Assembly (NCBI GenBank): GCA_003171065.1
Contig: PMXQ01000049.1
Location: forward strand, 1-32,426
Length of the DNA: 32,426 nt
Origin: Chloroflexota bacterium
Lineage (GTDB): Bacteria; Chloroflexota; Limnocylindria; Limnocylindrales; CSP1-4
Direction: 5' to 3'
The stretch's first letter is position 1. Each line of letters opens with the position of its first letter. The translations under genes and the position numbers were made by a program. The notes beneath the pieces were generated by a model. The model was not told the DNA's origin, did no database searches, and saw nothing but the letters and a program-made list of their open reading frames with translations. This document shows positions 17,980 through 32,426 of this stretch, piece after piece.

Positions 17980-18982
17980 CCTCGGTGCCTCCGCGGTTGA
18001 TGGCGATCTCGTCCGAGTCCTCGAGCTTCTTGACCGTGTCGATGATCCGCTGCTGCGCTTCCTCGACAGCCTTCATGCGGACCTGGCCGGCGAGGCTCAT
18101 TTCCTCGCGCAGCATGTCGGCCGCGCGCTGGGACATGTTGTTGAAGAACTTGAGACGCAGCTGCTCCGTCGCGGGCCGCAGAGCCAGCGCCATGTCCTTG
18201 GCGTCGAGCTCGCGGATAACGCGCTGCATGGCCCGATCGTCGAGGAGGACCATGTCGTCGAAGACGAACATGAAGCGGCGGACTTCATCGGCCAGCTGGG
18301 AATCCTGCTCAGAGAGGGCGGTCAGGATGAGGCGCTCGTTGGTTCGGCCGACCTGGTTGAGGACGTGGGCCAGCGGCCGCGTCCCGCCGACGGAAGTTAC
18401 GTCGGTGACGACGGACGAGAGCTTGCGGCGCAGGCCCTCCTCCACGATCTCGACGGCCTCAGGCGTGATCTGCTCCGTGAGCGCGATGCGCTTGGCGACC
18501 TCGACCTGGATCGGCGCCTCGAACTGGGTCAGGATGCCGGCAGCGGCCCGGGGGTCGATGTGGGCAAGTACGATGGCGATGGTCTGGGGGTGCTCGTCGG
18601 AGAGCAATCCGGCGGCCTGCAACGGATCGAGGTCCCGTATGAAGTCGAACGGAATGATCTGCTGAGCCTGGTGGACTCGCTCCAGCAGCTCGTGGGCCTT
18701 GCCCGACCCGAATGCCTGGCCAAAGAGCTCGACGGCGTAGTTCTCGCCACCGGGCAGGACGCCGGCGTGGGCGAACAGGCCGGCATAGGCCTCTTCGAGA
18801 ATGGCGTCGCGCGTCATCGAGTCGACAGCGGGCATTCGCATCAGCTCGAGGGCGACCCGATCGATGGCCTCAGGCGGCAGGCGGGCGAGCAGCTTGGCGG
18901 ACGCCTCGGTGCCGAGGGTGATCAACAGCGCGGCAGCCTTGCGCGGCCCGCTGAGGGCAATTGACGCTGCTTCCGGGCTCAT
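17966..18982 (-). CDS. fliG: Flagellar motor switch protein FliG
   Basis: LSGPRKAAALLITLGTEASAKLLARL...EHPQTIAIVLAHIDPRAAAGILTQF...FMFVFDDMVLLDDRAMQRVIRELDAKDMALALRPATEQLRLKFFNNMSQRAADMLREEM. Confidence 0.98.
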   Translation of the reverse strand: MSPEAASIALSGPRKAAALLITLGTEASAKLLARLPPEAIDRVALELMRMPAVDSMTRDAILEEAYAGLFAHAGVLPGGENYAVELFGQAFGSGKAHELLERVHQAQQIIPFDFIRDLDPLQAAGLLSDEHPQTIAIVLAHIDPRAAAGILTQFEAPIQVEVAKRIALTEQITPEAVEIVEEGLRRKLSSVVTDVTSVGGTRPLAHVLNQVGRTNERLILTALSEQDSQLADEVRRFMFVFDDMVLLDDRAMQRVIRELDAKDMALALRPATEQLRLKFFNNMSQRAADMLREEMSLAGQVRMKAVEEAQQRIIDTVKKLEDSDEIAINRGGTEDAFV

Positions 18983-20721
18983 CGACGGCGGTCCTCTTCA
19001 CGCAGCCAGCCGTGCATCAGGCCGACCAGGGCGTCCGGGCGCTCGTCGGCGACCATTCGAAGACGCTCTTGAATGCGAGCCTGCGGGGTGGCCCCCGGCA
19101 TCTCTGCCGGCGGAGCCTCGGGGGCGGCGATCGCCGGCGCGTTCGACCGCGCCGGGGCCGAGAGGTAGTTGTTGCTGCCGGCCTGGACCGGGCCGAGATC
19201 CATGACCGTCTCGTCGGCGCGCCGTCCGAGGGCGCGGGTGTTGATCCAGAAGAGGAGCAGCATGATGAGTGCGAAGACGGCTCCCAGGATCGTGCCGCTC
19301 ATGTCACCCACGGACTTCATCACGTCCGGCGCGGCGGCGGCGGAGGCGGAGCCGGCGCTGATCGCGGCGGAGGAAGGCAGCGCGGCGAAGGTGACGGAAT
19401 CGACCGCGACGACGTCGCCGCGGGTCGGGTCGGCGCCGATGGCAGCGGAGATGCTGGCCTGGAGCGTGTCGGTCTTGAGCGTGCCCAACGCCGACTGGTC
19501 GACCAGGACGGCGACCGAGAGACGCTTCACGACGCCGGGCTCGGTGACGACGTGCTGGACGGTCTGGGAAACGCTGTAGTTGATCGTGGTCTGCTGCTGG
19601 ATGTATCCGTTGTTCGAGGTCGTACCGGCGTCAGCCGAGGTGGCTGCCGCGGTGGGCGCCGCGGTGGCCCCGGCCGCGGTCGTGGGCGAGGCAGCCGGCG
19701 AGCTGGAAGCAGCGGCTGTCGGCACGGCCGTGGGAGCCGCCGTGGTGGTTGCCGAGGTGCCGGTGCAAACGCCCGGGTAGGAAGACAGGCCGGGTACATT
19801 GGAGTCGGAGCCGGGGATGCCACAGGCGCCCGCGGATGAACCCGCGCCATACTGCTCGTAGCTGTTGCTGATGCTCACCGGTGGGTTGCTGCCGGTCGGG
19901 GCGTAGGTCGTGATGTCCGCCTCGACCTTGTCCGTGTCGACGTCAGCGGAGACTGCAACGGCGGCGTGGCCCGGCCCCAGAGCGGCGTCGAGGAGAGCCT
20001 CTATCTTGGCCTGGGCCTGCTGCTCGACGAGGTCCTTGGCCTGCGCGGCGGCGGTGTCGGCCGAGTCGGCCGCTCCCGCCAGGACGTGGCCGTCGTCGTC
20101 GGTTACGACGACGTTGTCGGCGGACAGGCCGGCAATGGAGCCAGCGACGGTGTTCACGATGGCCTGAACGAGTCCACTCGAAGGCGCGCTGCCGTTGGTC
20201 ATAGTCAGAACCACGGAAGCGCTGGCCGGGGTGTCGTCGGAGGTGAGGACGCCCGTTTGAGCCATGACCACGGCGACGCGGGCGCTCGCGACGCCCTCCA
20301 TTCCCTGGATCGTCTGCGTCAGCTGGCCTTCGATTGCTCGCTGATAGGTGACCTGCTGGTCGAACTCCGATTCGCCGAACTGCTGATTGTTGAAGAGGTC
20401 AAAACCCTGGGTGTCGTTGGTGCCGGTGGTGACGCCCGCGGCCGCGGCCGCGATCTTCGCGTCCCCGAGATCATCGACGGGGACCAGGATCGTGGCGCCG
20501 GCGTCGGCGACCTCGTAGGCGATGTTCGCCCCACGGAGAGCACTCTCGATCGAGCCGGCGTCCGTGGCCGCCAGGTTGGTGAAAGCCGGCGTGTAGTCGG
20601 GCTTGCTGGCGAACATCACCAGGATGGCGATCGCCGCGACCGAACCGAGAACCGCGAAGATGATCCCGATCCGTTGAGTGATCGAGAGCTGCTTGAGGAT
20701 CGACTGGACCTGGTCGTTCAT
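18979..20721 (-). CDS. fliF: Flagellar MS-ring protein FliF
   Basis: MNDQVQSILKQLSITQRIGIIFAVLGSVAAIAILVMFASKPDYTPAFTNLAATDAGSIESALRGANIAYEV; YQRAIEGQLTQTIQGMEGVASARVAVVMAQ; C-terminal TM and cytoplasmic tail. Confidence 0.97.
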   Translation of the reverse strand: MNDQVQSILKQLSITQRIGIIFAVLGSVAAIAILVMFASKPDYTPAFTNLAATDAGSIESALRGANIAYEVADAGATILVPVDDLGDAKIAAAAAGVTTGTNDTQGFDLFNNQQFGESEFDQQVTYQRAIEGQLTQTIQGMEGVASARVAVVMAQTGVLTSDDTPASASVVLTMTNGSAPSSGLVQAIVNTVAGSIAGLSADNVVVTDDDGHVLAGAADSADTAAAQAKDLVEQQAQAKIEALLDAALGPGHAAVAVSADVDTDKVEADITTYAPTGSNPPVSISNSYEQYGAGSSAGACGIPGSDSNVPGLSSYPGVCTGTSATTTAAPTAVPTAAASSSPAASPTTAAGATAAPTAAATSADAGTTSNNGYIQQQTTINYSVSQTVQHVVTEPGVVKRLSVAVLVDQSALGTLKTDTLQASISAAIGADPTRGDVVAVDSVTFAALPSSAAISAGSASAAAAPDVMKSVGDMSGTILGAVFALIMLLLFWINTRALGRRADETVMDLGPVQAGSNNYLSAPARSNAPAIAAPEAPPAEMPGATPQARIQERLRMVADERPDALVGLMHGWLREEDRRR

Positions 20722-26339: not shown

Positions 26340-27584
26340 ATGGGCCAGATTCGCGTCCTGATCGTCGACGACTCGGCGTTCATGCGCCATGCCCTCGGCC
26401 GCCTGCTCGTCGAGGCGCCCGACATCGAGATCGTCGGGGCCGCCTCCAATGGCGAAGAGGGGCTGAGACTCGCCGGCGTGCTACGTCCCGACGTCATCAC
26501 GCTCGACGTGGAGATGCCTGTCCTGGACGGCCTGGGCATGCTCAAGCACCTCATGCTCGAGACGCCTACGCGAGTGGTCATGCTGTCCAGCCGGACGACG
26601 GAGGGTGCCCAAATAACCCTCGACGCGCTCGAATACGGCGCGATCGATTTCGTGTCCAAGCCATCCGGCTCGCTATCGATCGACATCGGCCGCGTCGGAG
26701 ACGATCTGGTCGCCAAGATCCGCGCCGCCGCCGGAATGTCCGAAGCCGCCTTCCTGCGCCACCGCCAGGTCGCGGCCATGAACCTGACCCTGATCCACAA
26801 CCGGGCTCACCTGAATGTGGCAGGCCAGTCGGCAGAGGTCTATATGCAGGGCCCTGGCGGCTCGAGGCTGCGGTCGCTGCCCGCCCTGCCGGTGCCGGCG
26901 CAGGGCAGGATGCCGGCCGGGCCCAGGATCGCCGCCCGCAGGCTGGTCGTGATCGCCTCTTCGACGGGCGGTCCGAGCGCGTTGCACGCCGTCGTCAAGG
27001 GACTCCCCGCCGATCTGGGAGCGGCCATCGCGATCGTCCAGCACATGCCCCCGGGGTTCACCGCATCACTCGCCGCGCGCCTCGAGTCGGCCGGCCTGCT
27101 GCCGTGCTCCGAGGCCGCCAGGGACGACATCCTTGCGGAAGATGAGATCCTCGTGGCGCCCGGCGATTTCCACCTGATCTGCAGCACGAGCGGTCACGTC
27201 CAGCTCGTCAGCCTTCCGCCGGTGAACGGCCTGCGCCCCGCCGCGGACGTCACGCTGCAGGCCGTGGCCCCAATCTGGCGCGAGCGACTGATGTGCGTCG
27301 TTCTGACCGGGATGGGCTGTGACGCCCGGGACGGAGCGCGTGCTGTGAAGCAGCACGGTGGCACCGTTATCTCCCAGGACGCCGCCACGGCGACGATCTA
27401 CGGCATGCCTGCGGCGGTCGCTGAGGCCGGCCTGTCCGACCAGATCCTGCCGCTGCACGAGATCGCCGAAGGCATCGCGGCCTGGTGCAGCTCAGATCGA
27501 AGACCGGACCGCGCTGTGGACCGCGCTGTGGACCCCGAACATGGGCCCGTTTCCGAGCCGGACCGACCCGCCCTCGCCTCGTGA
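26340..27584 (+). CDS. cheB: Protein-glutamate methylesterase CheB
   Basis: REC domain RVLIVDDSAFMRHALGRLL...VITLDVEMPVLDGL; esterase domain VVIASSTGGPSALHAVV, AIVQHMPPGFTASLAARL, VLTGMGCDARDGARAVKQHGG. Confidence 0.96.
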   Translation: MGQIRVLIVDDSAFMRHALGRLLVEAPDIEIVGAASNGEEGLRLAGVLRPDVITLDVEMPVLDGLGMLKHLMLETPTRVVMLSSRTTEGAQITLDALEYGAIDFVSKPSGSLSIDIGRVGDDLVAKIRAAAGMSEAAFLRHRQVAAMNLTLIHNRAHLNVAGQSAEVYMQGPGGSRLRSLPALPVPAQGRMPAGPRIAARRLVVIASSTGGPSALHAVVKGLPADLGAAIAIVQHMPPGFTASLAARLESAGLLPCSEAARDDILAEDEILVAPGDFHLICSTSGHVQLVSLPPVNGLRPAADVTLQAVAPIWRERLMCVVLTGMGCDARDGARAVKQHGGTVISQDAATATIYGMPAAVAEAGLSDQILPLHEIAEGIAAWCSSDRRPDRAVDRAVDPEHGPVSEPDRPALAS

Positions 27585-27697
27585 AGCGGCTCGCATGCGG
27601 GGGCCGACCTGCCTCACTATCGCCCACCCAAAACCGATACCTAATCGAGAGCTAGCAGCCGGATCGTGTCCGGCGGAACATGCAAGGAGATAGCGCC

Positions 27698-28183
27698 GTG
27701 GCCGACAAGCCAACGTCCGGCGGCAGTCGCTCTGGGGAGCTGCAGATCGTCGTCTGCGAGCTCGCAGACGAGCACTACGGCCTGGATATCGCCCGAGTCT
27801 TCGAGATCATCCGCCACCAGCCGATCACGCCCGTGCCGAGGGCTCCGGACTTCGTGAAGGGCGTCATCAACTTGCGCGGCAGGATCATCCCCGTGGTGGA
27901 TTTGCGCGGTCGCTTCGGAATGCCCGGGACCGACCCCACCAAGGAGACCCGCATCGTGGTCGCGGAAAGCAGCTCCACCCGCGTCGGCCTGATCGTCGAC
28001 AGCGTCTCGGAGGTGCTCCTCCTGCCGCTCGACGCCGTGGAGCCGACGCCCGAGGTCGCGGCGGGGGCGGACGCGGAGTACCTGCGCGGCATCGCCAAGC
28101 TGGGCGATCGCCTGGTGCTCCTGCTGGAGCTCGACGGCCTCTTCGGACGAGAGGAACAGAACGCCCTGGCCGGAGCCGCCTGA
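27698..28183 (+). CDS. cheW: Chemotaxis coupling protein CheW (GTG 27698 favoured; AAGGAG lies just upstream inside the 27680 ORF start)
   Basis: LQIVVCELADEHYGLDIARVFEIIRHQPITPVPRAPDFVKGVINLRGRIIPVVDLRGRFGM. Confidence 0.95.
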   Translation: MADKPTSGGSRSGELQIVVCELADEHYGLDIARVFEIIRHQPITPVPRAPDFVKGVINLRGRIIPVVDLRGRFGMPGTDPTKETRIVVAESSSTRVGLIVDSVSEVLLLPLDAVEPTPEVAAGADAEYLRGIAKLGDRLVLLLELDGLFGREEQNALAGAA

Positions 28184-28186
28184 GCC

Positions 28187-28651
28187 ATGAGAGTCCAGAT
28201 AGTCAACCGCTACGTTCAGGCGGCCCTCGACGTGATCGGCAAAGAGACCGGCATTGCGGCCAAGCGCGGCGGCCTTCTCCTGGAGGGCAACCCCTACACC
28301 ACCGAAGACGTGACCGCGGTGATTGGCATCAGCGGGTCGCTGACGGGCTCGCTGTACCTCTCCATGGCCGAGCCGACTGCGCTCAAGATCATCAGCGCGA
28401 TCATCGGCCAGGAAACGACCGAGCTCGACGAACTGGGCCAGAGCGGGATCGCCGAAATGGCGAACGTCATCGCCGGAACCGCGGGCATAGGGCTCGCCGA
28501 GGAAGGCGTCGAAACACAGATCAACCCGCCCCTGGTGCTGGTCGGCAGAGGGGCGCGCCTATCGACGGTCGAGATCCAGCGCCTGGTCGTGCCGCTCACC
28601 ACCGCTTACGGCGAGGTCAAGCTCCACGTTGCGCTGAGAGAGGCCGCCTGA
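28187..28651 (+). CDS. cheX: Chemotaxis phosphatase CheX
   Basis: GSLTGSLYLSMAEPTALKIISAIIGQE...SGIAEMANVIAGTAGIGLAEEG with E-x2-N motif. Confidence 0.88.
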   Translation: MRVQIVNRYVQAALDVIGKETGIAAKRGGLLLEGNPYTTEDVTAVIGISGSLTGSLYLSMAEPTALKIISAIIGQETTELDELGQSGIAEMANVIAGTAGIGLAEEGVETQINPPLVLVGRGARLSTVEIQRLVVPLTTAYGEVKLHVALREAA

Positions 28652-28652
28652 C

Positions 28653-31082
28653 ATGCCTCTGACCTTCGATCTGCAGCCCGGCGACGACCGTCTGTTCACG
28701 GACGAATCGCTCGAGCAGATCGAACGCATCGAGCAGGGCCTGCTCACTCTGGAGCACGGCCTCGATGGCGGGGTGGTCAACGAAGTCTTCCGGGCAGCCC
28801 ACACCCTCAAGGGCTCCGCCGCAACGATCGGTCATCGCCGCATGGCCGAGCTGACCCACGCGATGGAGGACCTCTTCGGCGCCTTCCGCAGCGGAACGCT
28901 GCACGAGGTCAAGCCCTTCGCCGACGTCCTGCTCTCTACGATCGACGTCCTGCGTTCCCTCGTGGCCGAGGTCCAGGAGGGCGAGATCCTCACCGACGCA
29001 CCCGAACCGCTGACCAGGCAGCTCCGCGAGCTGCTCTCCACGGCCACGGCCGCGGCGGCGGCCAGATCGTCGGCCAGGCCGGCGGCGGCTCGCGCACATC
29101 AGCCGGCGCCCGTTGCTCGCCCGCCGGTGCCGGCGCCCGGCCCGATGACTCCGCCACCGGCCTCACGAACGGCGCCGCCGGTTTCGGGACCGGCTCCGGC
29201 CCTGACTCCGGCGTCGGACGGCGAGCCCGCAGCAGGGCCCGATGAGAAGGCAGACCGAGGCGCCGCGCCCGCCAGCGCATCCGACGATGTCGAGGACGGC
29301 GTCACCAACGTCGCCATCGCGCCCCTGATCCAGCGGCTCCTCTACGACGCTCCCAGCGGCTTCGAGCCGCGCTCGCTCTTTGTCTGCCGGATCGACCCCA
29401 CGAGCGAGTGGCAGGCGGTCCGCCTCCTGCAGCTCGTGCTGGAGGTCGAGGAGGCCGGCGCCCTCGTCGAATCGGTGCCGGGCCGCGAGGAGATCGAGAG
29501 TGGCCTTGGCTCCTCGCTGCTGGCCATTCTCGTGCGGGGCCGGCCCAGCGAGCTCACGGAGCTGCGCGGCCGCCTGGCCGCGATCGACGAAGTCGTGAGC
29601 GTGGAGATGGTCGCGGCCCCGCTTACGTCCGGCCGGGACGACGCCCCGGACCTGGCTTCGAACGTGGAAGTGTACGGCCCCGGCGAAACCACATCTCCGA
29701 TGGGTGCCGACCGTGGCGACGACCGCAAGGAGGCGGGCCCGCCCACCGCGGAGCGCCGCCAGGCCGACCTCGGCGCGGAGGCCCGCGGGCTGCCGCCCGG
29801 CGAGCGGATGACCGTCGCCGGCGACCGCCTCAAGGCCGCCCAGCAGACGATCCGCATCGACGTGGCTCGCCTGGACGAGCTGATGAATCTCGTCGGCGAG
29901 CTGGTGGTCCACAAGACCCGCCTGCAGCGGAGCTCCCAGGAACTAGCCCTGCGCCTCGGCGACGACCCGCTTGCGCGCCAGGCCGACGAGGACAGCCAGC
30001 AGTTCGCCCGCATCGCCGGTCAGCTGCAGGACCAGGTCACCGGCCTGCGCATGCTGCCGATAGAGACCATCTTCAACCGCTTCCCGCGTGTCGTGCGCGA
30101 CATCGCCGCCAGGCTCGACAAGGAAGTGCAGCTCGTCATCGAGGGCAAGGAGACGGAGCTGGACCGGTCCGTGCTCGAGGAGGTGGGCGACCCGCTGGGC
30201 CACCTCGTCCGCAACGCCCTGGACCACGGCATCGAGTCGCCGGCCGAGCGCCGGGCCGCCGGCAAGCCGCTGCCTGGCACAGTCCGGCTGACGGCCCGTC
30301 ACGCCGATGGCAGGATCCTGATCACGGTCGAGGACGACGGCCGGGGCATGGACCCCGCGGCGCTGCGGCAAGCGGTGGTGGAGAAGGGCCTGATGACCCA
30401 CGAGGCGGCCGAGGCAACCGGCGACGCCGAAGTCCTGCGCGTCATCTTCCTGCCCGGCTTCTCGACCGCGAAGGTGGTCACCGAAGTCTCCGGCCGGGGC
30501 GTCGGCATGGATGTCGTCCGCAACAACATCGAGCGGCTCGGCGGCTGGGTCGACGTCTCGAGCACGGCTGGCGCTGGCACGAAGGTTTCGCTGTCGTTGC
30601 CGCTCACTCTGGCGATCCTCGGCGCCCTGCTCGTCAAGTCCGGCTCACGCGTCTGCGCGCTGCCGCTCACGGGCGTCGTGGAGACGCTCCGAGTGGAGCC
30701 GCGGTCGTTCGCCCGCGTTCGCGGCCACAACGTCCTGACGCTACGCAACCGCGTCATCCCGGTGGAGCAGCTCGACAGCGCCCTCGGCGACCCGCCCCGG
30801 CCGCTCGTCACGAACGAGCGCGGCTTCATCAACCTGGTCGTGGTGCGGTCCCGCGACACCGAGATGGCCCTCGCCGTCGACGCTTTCGTCGGCCAGCACG
30901 AGATCGTCCTCAAATCCCTGAACAAGCTCGCGGGCGAGCGCAAGGGTCTGGCCGGGGCGACCGTGATGGCGGACGGAGCGGTCGGGCTGGTCGTGGACAT
31001 CGCCGCCCTGCTGGAATACACGGCGACCGCGACGGCCCGGATGGCGGCCGCGGTCGCGCACTCGGACTCCAGGGTCGCCTGA
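28653..31082 (+). CDS. cheA: Chemotaxis histidine kinase CheA
   Basis: P1 FRAAHTLKGSAATIGHRRMAELTHAMEDLF; P3 LDELMNLVGELVVHKTRL; P4 HLVRNALDHGIESPAERRAAGKP, VEDDGRGMD, GRGVGMDVVRNNIERLGG; P5 CheW-like C-terminus. Confidence 0.97.
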   Translation: MPLTFDLQPGDDRLFTDESLEQIERIEQGLLTLEHGLDGGVVNEVFRAAHTLKGSAATIGHRRMAELTHAMEDLFGAFRSGTLHEVKPFADVLLSTIDVLRSLVAEVQEGEILTDAPEPLTRQLRELLSTATAAAAARSSARPAAARAHQPAPVARPPVPAPGPMTPPPASRTAPPVSGPAPALTPASDGEPAAGPDEKADRGAAPASASDDVEDGVTNVAIAPLIQRLLYDAPSGFEPRSLFVCRIDPTSEWQAVRLLQLVLEVEEAGALVESVPGREEIESGLGSSLLAILVRGRPSELTELRGRLAAIDEVVSVEMVAAPLTSGRDDAPDLASNVEVYGPGETTSPMGADRGDDRKEAGPPTAERRQADLGAEARGLPPGERMTVAGDRLKAAQQTIRIDVARLDELMNLVGELVVHKTRLQRSSQELALRLGDDPLARQADEDSQQFARIAGQLQDQVTGLRMLPIETIFNRFPRVVRDIAARLDKEVQLVIEGKETELDRSVLEEVGDPLGHLVRNALDHGIESPAERRAAGKPLPGTVRLTARHADGRILITVEDDGRGMDPAALRQAVVEKGLMTHEAAEATGDAEVLRVIFLPGFSTAKVVTEVSGRGVGMDVVRNNIERLGGWVDVSSTAGAGTKVSLSLPLTLAILGALLVKSGSRVCALPLTGVVETLRVEPRSFARVRGHNVLTLRNRVIPVEQLDSALGDPPRPLVTNERGFINLVVVRSRDTEMALAVDAFVGQHEIVLKSLNKLAGERKGLAGATVMADGAVGLVVDIAALLEYTATATARMAAAVAHSDSRVA

Positions 31083-31281: not shown

Positions 31282-32426
31282 TCGCCGGCACAGGCCCGAC
31301 GCCGTCGCCGGCTGAAGCCTCACTCACCTCATCGATCGTTCCGTAGCCCGTGCCGTTGTTTCAATCCGCAGCCGACGCCGTCGCCGGCTGAAGCCGTCAC
31401 CCTCGGCGACTCCCGGCTAGACACGGCCGTTTCAATCCGCAGCCGACGCCGTCGCCGGCTGAAGCCCAGCCATCCTTTTGTCCGAGCAACGCTACGCGGC
31501 CCTCGTTTCAATCCGCAGCCGACGCCGTCGCCGGCTGAAGCATGCAGCTTCTCACCGGGCAGGCGACCGAGCGGACCGAGTTTCAATCCGCAGCCGACGC
31601 CGTCGCCGGCTGAAGCCTCTCACTCCGCCGTACCACGGGGCTCTCACAGCGAGTTTCAATCCGCAGCCGACGCCGTCGCCGGCTGAAGCCACCGTGAGCG
31701 TTGCGCCGCCCCACGTCACCTGATCGTTTCAATCCGCAGCCGACGCCGTCGCCGGCTGAAGCTCGAACACCGGCAGTACATAGGGCGTGCGGAACATGTT
31801 TCAATCCGCAGCCGACGCCGTCGCCGGCTGAAGCGTCTGTCCCGAGTTGCAGCCCGCCGGCCAGTTCGGGTTTCAATCCACAGCCGACGCCGTCGCCGGC
31901 TGAAGCGAGCGTCGCTACATCGTCGGGGCCGCGCGGTGTGAGTTTCAATCCGCAGCCGACGCCGTCGCCGGCTGAAGCCGAACACCGGCAGTACGTAGGG
32001 CGTGCGGAACATGTTTCAATCCGCAGCCGACGCCGTCGCCGGCTGAAGCCGACCAGCGTTCGACAATCTCCCAGTTGAGATCTCCCCAGTTTCAATCCGC
32101 AGCCGACGCCGTCGCCGGCTGAAGCTCTTGTGATTGGTCGTTGAGCCGTCTAGGACCGCCTGTTTCAATCCGCAGCCGACGCCGTCGCCGGCTGAAGCGC
32201 GTTCCGACCGCGCGATGTGCGCAGCAGCGACATGTTTCAATCCGCAGCCGACGCCGTCGCCGGCTGAAGCCTCCGCCATCTCGCGAGTAAGGCTCGGCAC
32301 GCGGGAGTTTCAATCCGCAGCCGACGCCGTCGCCGGCTGAAGGGGGCCGAGAGCCGCTTCCGGCACGAGTCGGTTCTTGTTTCAATCCGCAGCCGACGCC
32401 GTCGCCGGCTGAAGGCAGTCATACAT
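31282..32426 (-). CRISPR. CRISPR array: 16 repeats visible (leftmost degenerate), consensus on + strand GTTTCAATCCGCAGCCGACGCCGTCGCCGGCTGAAGC; inferred crRNA orientation is minus (GCTTCAGCCGGCGACGGCGTCGGCTGCGGATTGAAAC); truncated by the window end
   Basis: Repeat starts at 31358, 31429, 31505, 31580, 31653, 31726, 31798, 31870, 31942, 32013, 32089, 32162, 32234, 32307, 32379, plus degenerate copy ending 31318. Spacers about 34-39 nt. Repeat ends in ATTGAAAC when read on the minus strand. Confidence 0.98.

What the first reader, a model, noticed from the sequence alone, without database searches (positions are those of the whole stretch)
31763..32012. Two near-identical CRISPR spacers differing by one internal SNP and one terminal nucleotide
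Spacer 31763-31797 (TCGAACACCGGCAGTACATAGGGCGTGCGGAACAT) and spacer 31979-32012 (CGAACACCGGCAGTACGTAGGGCGTGCGGAACAT) are the same sequence except for A/G at one position and one extra nucleotide at one end. Read on the minus strand they are ATGTTCCGCACGCCCTAtGTACTGCCGGTGTTCGA and ATGTTCCGCACGCCCTAcGTACTGCCGGTGTTCG: identical at the 5' (repeat-handle) end, different length at the 3' end. In frame 1 the SNP is TAT/TAC, both Tyr (MFRTPYVLPVF). That pattern fits two independent acquisitions at the same PAM-anchored site from two alleles of one target coding gene, rather than a recombinational array duplication. Two other spacers lie between them.
Basis: partly seen in the sequence, partly recalled or inferred. 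Interest (0 to 1): 0.72.

Follow-up and report, generated by a model that had tools for sequence, protein, structure and literature searches.

The report
Twice-recorded viral site in CRISPR
This bacterium's immune memory holds two almost identical entries, most likely because it sampled the same spot of one virus gene on two occasions from two slightly different virus strains; a survey of related bacteria shows this is a fairly ordinary habit of this type of CRISPR system.

Summary
Observation confirmed. Spacers 31763-31797 (35 nt) and 31979-32012 (34 nt) differ by one internal base and one end base, with two unrelated spacers between them. They are the only related pair among 53 complete spacers of a type I-C array whose leader and cas genes (cas3-5-8c-7-4-1-2) lie on contig C119 of the same assembly. 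The array is read on the minus strand. The shared end is the crRNA 5' end (where type I-C systems have the PAM); the length difference is at the PAM-distal end.

Identical pairs (28) are mostly in runs (18), i.e. segmental duplications. Non-identical related pairs (38) are never in runs; 26 share the 5' end exactly, and 25 of those differ at the 3' end. The window pair falls in that class, so independent PAM-anchored acquisition from two alleles is the best explanation. Array-wide codon phase supports the reading frame MFRTPYVLPVF, which makes the SNP silent.

The phenomenon is not rare: 7 of 22 surveyed arrays have such a pair. No protospacer was found, and the viral-contig search did not complete, so virus and PAM remain unproven. 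Verdict: real, correctly read, ordinary.

The parts
31296..32426 (-). Trailer-side part of a type I-C CRISPR array: 15 full 37-nt repeats (31358-32415) plus a degenerate terminal repeat from about 31296; runs off the contig end; leader end is on contig C119 of the same genome
31763..31797 (-). Spacer A (older), 35 nt, crRNA sense ATGTTCCGCACGCCCTATGTACTGCCGGTGTTCGA
31979..32012 (-). Spacer B (newer, nearer the leader), 34 nt, crRNA sense ATGTTCCGCACGCCCTACGTACTGCCGGTGTTCG
31780..31780 (-). Differing base in A (spacer position 18; T on crRNA sense); third base of a Tyr codon in frame 1
31995..31995 (-). Differing base in B (spacer position 18; C on crRNA sense)
31835..31869 (-). Unrelated spacer between A and B, single copy in the array
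31870..31906 (-). Repeat with one substitution (CCACAG for CCGCAG), single copy, so a marker against duplication of this segment
31907..31941 (-). Unrelated spacer between A and B, single copy in the array

Best explanation
Spacers A and B are two independent acquisitions by a Cas4-containing type I-C adaptation module (Cas4-Cas1-Cas2) at the same PAM-anchored site of one foreign coding gene, taken at two times from two alleles of that gene. The PAM-side cut fixed the shared 5' end; the other end varied by one base. The allele difference is a silent third-position change. A was integrated first, then two unrelated spacers, then B. Shown here: the pair, the array orientation and order, the complete I-C gene set, the 5'-anchored class of pairs in related arrays, and array-wide codon phase. 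Inferred: PAM TTC, target a virus or other mobile element, silent change, and that spacer A's crRNA would still recognise allele B because position 18 is a base flipped out of the guide in Cascade.
For: Complete I-C cas operon beside the leader on C119. Pair shares the 5' end and differs in length at the 3' end. In 22 I-C arrays with 1023 spacers: 38 non-identical related pairs, 0 in runs, 26 with the same 5' end, 2 with the same 3' end; 28 identical pairs, 18 in runs. Of pairs with both ends the same, 28 of 29 are identical, so duplicated spacers rarely carry a substitution. Two random spacers of this array differ in length 83% of the time. GC is 0.77 at spacer positions 3, 6, 9... versus 0.57-0.59 at the other two phases, with 0 of 5000 random-phase draws as high; under that phase frame 1 is the open frame and the SNP is a third position. 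Published: in the type I-C system Cas4 cuts precisely at the PAM (PMC6519985); different length and SNPs were used as the signature of independent acquisition in Sulfolobus (PMC2946923).
Against: No protospacer found in phages, plasmids, own genome, 107 family genomes, 177 class genomes or an 85,462-species genome collection. So neither the PAM nor the two alleles are seen directly. TTC is only sixth of 64 triplets in explaining the codon phase. No reads to confirm the base.
Confidence: 0.85

Rival explanations
1. One spacer was copied within the array by recombination between repeats; the extra units were lost, and the copies then gained a substitution and a one-base length change.
For: Exact duplications in runs do occur in related I-C arrays (18 identical pairs in runs). 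A published Bifidobacterium study reports recurring spacers and cites earlier attribution to duplication (PMC12915315).
Against: Neither intervening spacer nor the marked repeat between them is duplicated. Only 3 substitutions are seen in the 15 full repeats (555 bases) of this contig's array and none in the 36 N-free repeats of C119. In related arrays, pairs with the same ends are identical in 28 of 29 cases, and length changes fall at the 3' end rather than at both ends.
Confidence: 0.08
2. Assembly or strain-mixture artefact: A and B are one spacer in different strains of a metagenome population, stitched into one contig.
For: The source looks like a draft binned assembly (151 contigs, 88% complete) and contig C119 has NN joins inside two repeats. 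Reads were not available.
Against: A strain bubble would give the same neighbours; A and B have four different neighbours, and there is no N in this stretch. The longest exact stretch shared by the two units is 54 nt, which a k-mer of 55 or more resolves. The same pattern occurs in complete single-contig genomes (G295, G323).
Confidence: 0.05
3. The pair is an escape-and-update record (a variant of the best explanation): the virus mutated to escape spacer A and the host then re-acquired the changed site as B.
For: B is nearer the leader, so newer; the change lies inside the target.
Against: The change is at position 18, outside the seed and at a multiple of six; these bases are flipped out in type I-E Cascade (6, 12, 18, 24, 30; PMC5965380) and every sixth base is flipped in class 1 complexes generally (PMC11127173), so it would hardly weaken spacer A. 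The exact register in I-C was not verified here. Across 14 such pairs, changes are not concentrated in positions 1-8 (9 of 34, expected 8.5) nor at multiples of six (7 of 34, p 0.48).
Confidence: 0.08

Closest known systems
Type I-C CRISPR-Cas (Cas4-Cas1-Cas2 adaptation, Cas5c-Cas8c-Cas7 Cascade)
   Same: Full gene order cas3-cas5-cas8c-cas7-cas4-cas1-cas2 next to the leader; repeat ending GGATTGAAAC; spacers mostly 34-39 nt.
   Different: Repeat is 37 nt; the published type I-C PAM (TTC) could not be verified because no protospacer was found.
Independent acquisition of overlapping spacers in Sulfolobus islandicus (Held et al. 2010, PMC2946923)
   Same: Same signature: near-match spacers in different array contexts with different length or SNPs, read as separate acquisitions.
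   Different: There most pairs were offset and came from different strains; here both sit in one array with an identical PAM-side end.
Recurring near-identical spacers in Bifidobacterium arrays (PMC12915315)
   Same: Spacers in one array differing by a few bases.
   Different: That paper, citing earlier work, mentions duplication rather than independent acquisition; here length, context and a survey favour acquisition.

Membership tests
[quoted passage not shown]
   TIGR01863, TIGR02589, TIGR01876 all above curated cut-offs
[quoted passage not shown]
   TIGR03640 459 bits over cut-off 385, TIGR01573, TIGR00372
[quoted passage not shown]
   cas3 core and HD domain models over cut-off
[quoted passage not shown]
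   No protospacer found; codon phase fits TTC but also other triplets (rank 6 of 64)
Independent PAM-anchored re-acquisition pair | Same 5' (PAM-side) end, variable 3' end | tested here: met
Independent PAM-anchored re-acquisition pair | Not part of a run of duplicated units | tested here: met
   only related pair among 53 spacers
Independent PAM-anchored re-acquisition pair | Two target alleles exist, each with the PAM | tested here: inconclusive
   No target found in the collections that answered; viral contigs gave no answer
Segmental array duplication | Identical units in runs with the same lengths | tested here: not met

The most novel reading that the evidence does not exclude
Because spacers of this array start in codon phase, the bases that Cascade does not read (every sixth) would all fall on third codon positions, so silent drift of the target often would not weaken an existing spacer; re-acquisition pairs such as A and B would then mark neutral viral lineages rather than escape.
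Probability: 0.15. Interest if true: 0.5.

Novelty: new member of a known kind. Interest (0 to 1): 0.27.

Why it matters
Near-identical spacers are sometimes put down to array duplication. The survey here gives a simple test from sequence alone: type I-C re-acquisitions keep the PAM-side end and vary at the other end, whereas duplications are exact and mostly come in runs. Such pairs then record two alleles of one target and the order in which they were met. The individual finding is ordinary; the sorting rule is the useful part.

Tried and rejected
Protospacer searches: blastn of each spacer and of pooled spacers against phages and plasmids gave only chance-level hits (E 3-4) or none; own genome with up to 3 mismatches found only the two spacers; 107 family genomes none; the degenerate code for MFRTPYVLPVF in genome contigs and for FRTPYVLPVF in 177 class genomes none beyond the array itself. 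The idea that changes between paired spacers concentrate at every sixth base looked tempting in the single-SNP pairs (positions 1, 6, 11, 18, 18) but fails over all 34 changes (7, p 0.48). Phase clustering of changes within pairs is only suggestive (p 0.08). Inferring the PAM from codon phase was not specific enough.

Full report
What was checked. The window is the whole of contig C9 of a draft genome of 3.02 Mb in 151 contigs. The array occupies about 31296-32426 and runs off the contig end. On the crRNA-sense strand they differ only at position 18 (T/C) and by one terminal A.

Orientation and system. The same repeat occurs on contig C119, which begins inside an array of 38 further complete spacers and ends it with leader-like sequence followed by cas2, cas1, cas4, cas7, cas8c, cas5 and cas3 on the minus strand. 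NCBIfam models place these in type I-C. The degenerate repeat at about 31296 marks the trailer end on C9. C9 is therefore the old end of the same array, or of a sister array with the same repeat; the join between C9 and C119 was not seen. Spacer A is older than spacer B, with two unrelated spacers acquired between them.

Is it a duplication? Among 53 complete spacers only this pair is related (33 of 34; next best 20 of 34). The repeat between the two intervening spacers carries a private substitution that is not copied elsewhere. A run duplication is therefore not seen.

Survey. Type I-C loci were located in relatives of the same phylum by the Csd1 model and their arrays were taken. With the own array this gave 22 arrays and 1023 spacers. 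At a score that shuffled spacers never reached, 28 identical and 38 non-identical pairs were found. Identical pairs lie mostly in runs (18 of 28). Non-identical pairs never do; 26 of 38 begin at exactly the same base on the crRNA 5' side and 25 of those end at different bases, while only 2 share the 3' end. Counts are of pairs, and one array (L023) supplies 34 of the 66, so they are not all independent. This is the pattern expected if Cas4 fixes the PAM-side cut and the other end is loose, which agrees with the published precise PAM-side cleavage in a type I-C system (PMC6519985). Seven of the 22 arrays hold at least one 5'-anchored non-identical pair, so the window pair is ordinary in kind.

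Reading frame. GC content at spacer positions 3, 6, 9 and so on is 0.77 against 0.57-0.59 at the other two phases over the own array with B left out, and none of 5000 random-phase draws reached it. Targets are thus mostly coding and in phase with the spacer start, as expected when the PAM triplet sits in codon phase. For A and B this points to frame 1 (MFRTPYVLPVF), where the change is TAT/TAC, both Tyr. The antisense frame with the same phase contains a stop. The phase fits TTC but does not single it out.

Effect of the change. Position 18 is outside the seed and is one of the bases flipped out of the guide in type I-E Cascade (PMC5965380); flipping of every sixth base is described for class 1 complexes generally (PMC11127173). 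By inference spacer A would still recognise allele B, so B is better read as a second record of a circulating lineage than as an answer to escape. Over 14 surveyed pairs, changes were not enriched at multiples of six or in positions 1-8, so no general claim is made.

What is missing. No target was found in any collection that answered, and viral contigs could not be searched. The name of the organism was not established. The two-allele claim therefore rests on spacer anatomy and on the comparative survey, not on observed protospacers.

Novelty. The signature of independent acquisition was described between Sulfolobus strains in 2010 (PMC2946923), and near-identical spacers within an array are reported in Bifidobacterium (PMC12915315). 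This is a clean new example, not a new kind.

Noticed in passing
window 31296-32426 and L009:1-2800: Spacers start in codon phase: GC 0.77 at positions 3n versus 0.57-0.59 at the other two phases; 7 of 53 spacers begin with ATG. Phase 3 is also the most GC-rich in the other ten arrays with at least 25 unique spacers, to varying degrees.
   Followed up: partly
L013:1501-1854 (relative G008): A related I-C-like repeat array appears to run through a hybrid repeat into an array with I-E-like repeats: two arrays fused at a repeat, or an assembly chimera.
   Followed up: no
L009:223-224 and L009:2193-2194 (C119): NN joins inside two repeats, so spacer order on C119 partly rests on scaffolding.
   Followed up: no
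window 32343 and 32415: Last base of the repeat is G instead of C in the last two repeats of C9, as in the related array of G008.
   Followed up: no
L009:1033-1076: One unusually long spacer (44 nt; all others 33-39).
   Followed up: no
L023 (G295), whole array: One array of 164 spacers holds 34 related spacer pairs, i.e. repeated sampling of the same sites with several alleles and overlapping offsets; a good model for this phenomenon.
   Followed up: partly
window 18979-20721 (-) and 26340-31082 (+): Flagellar fliF and chemotaxis genes cheB, cheW, cheX, cheA in the rest of the window.
   Followed up: no
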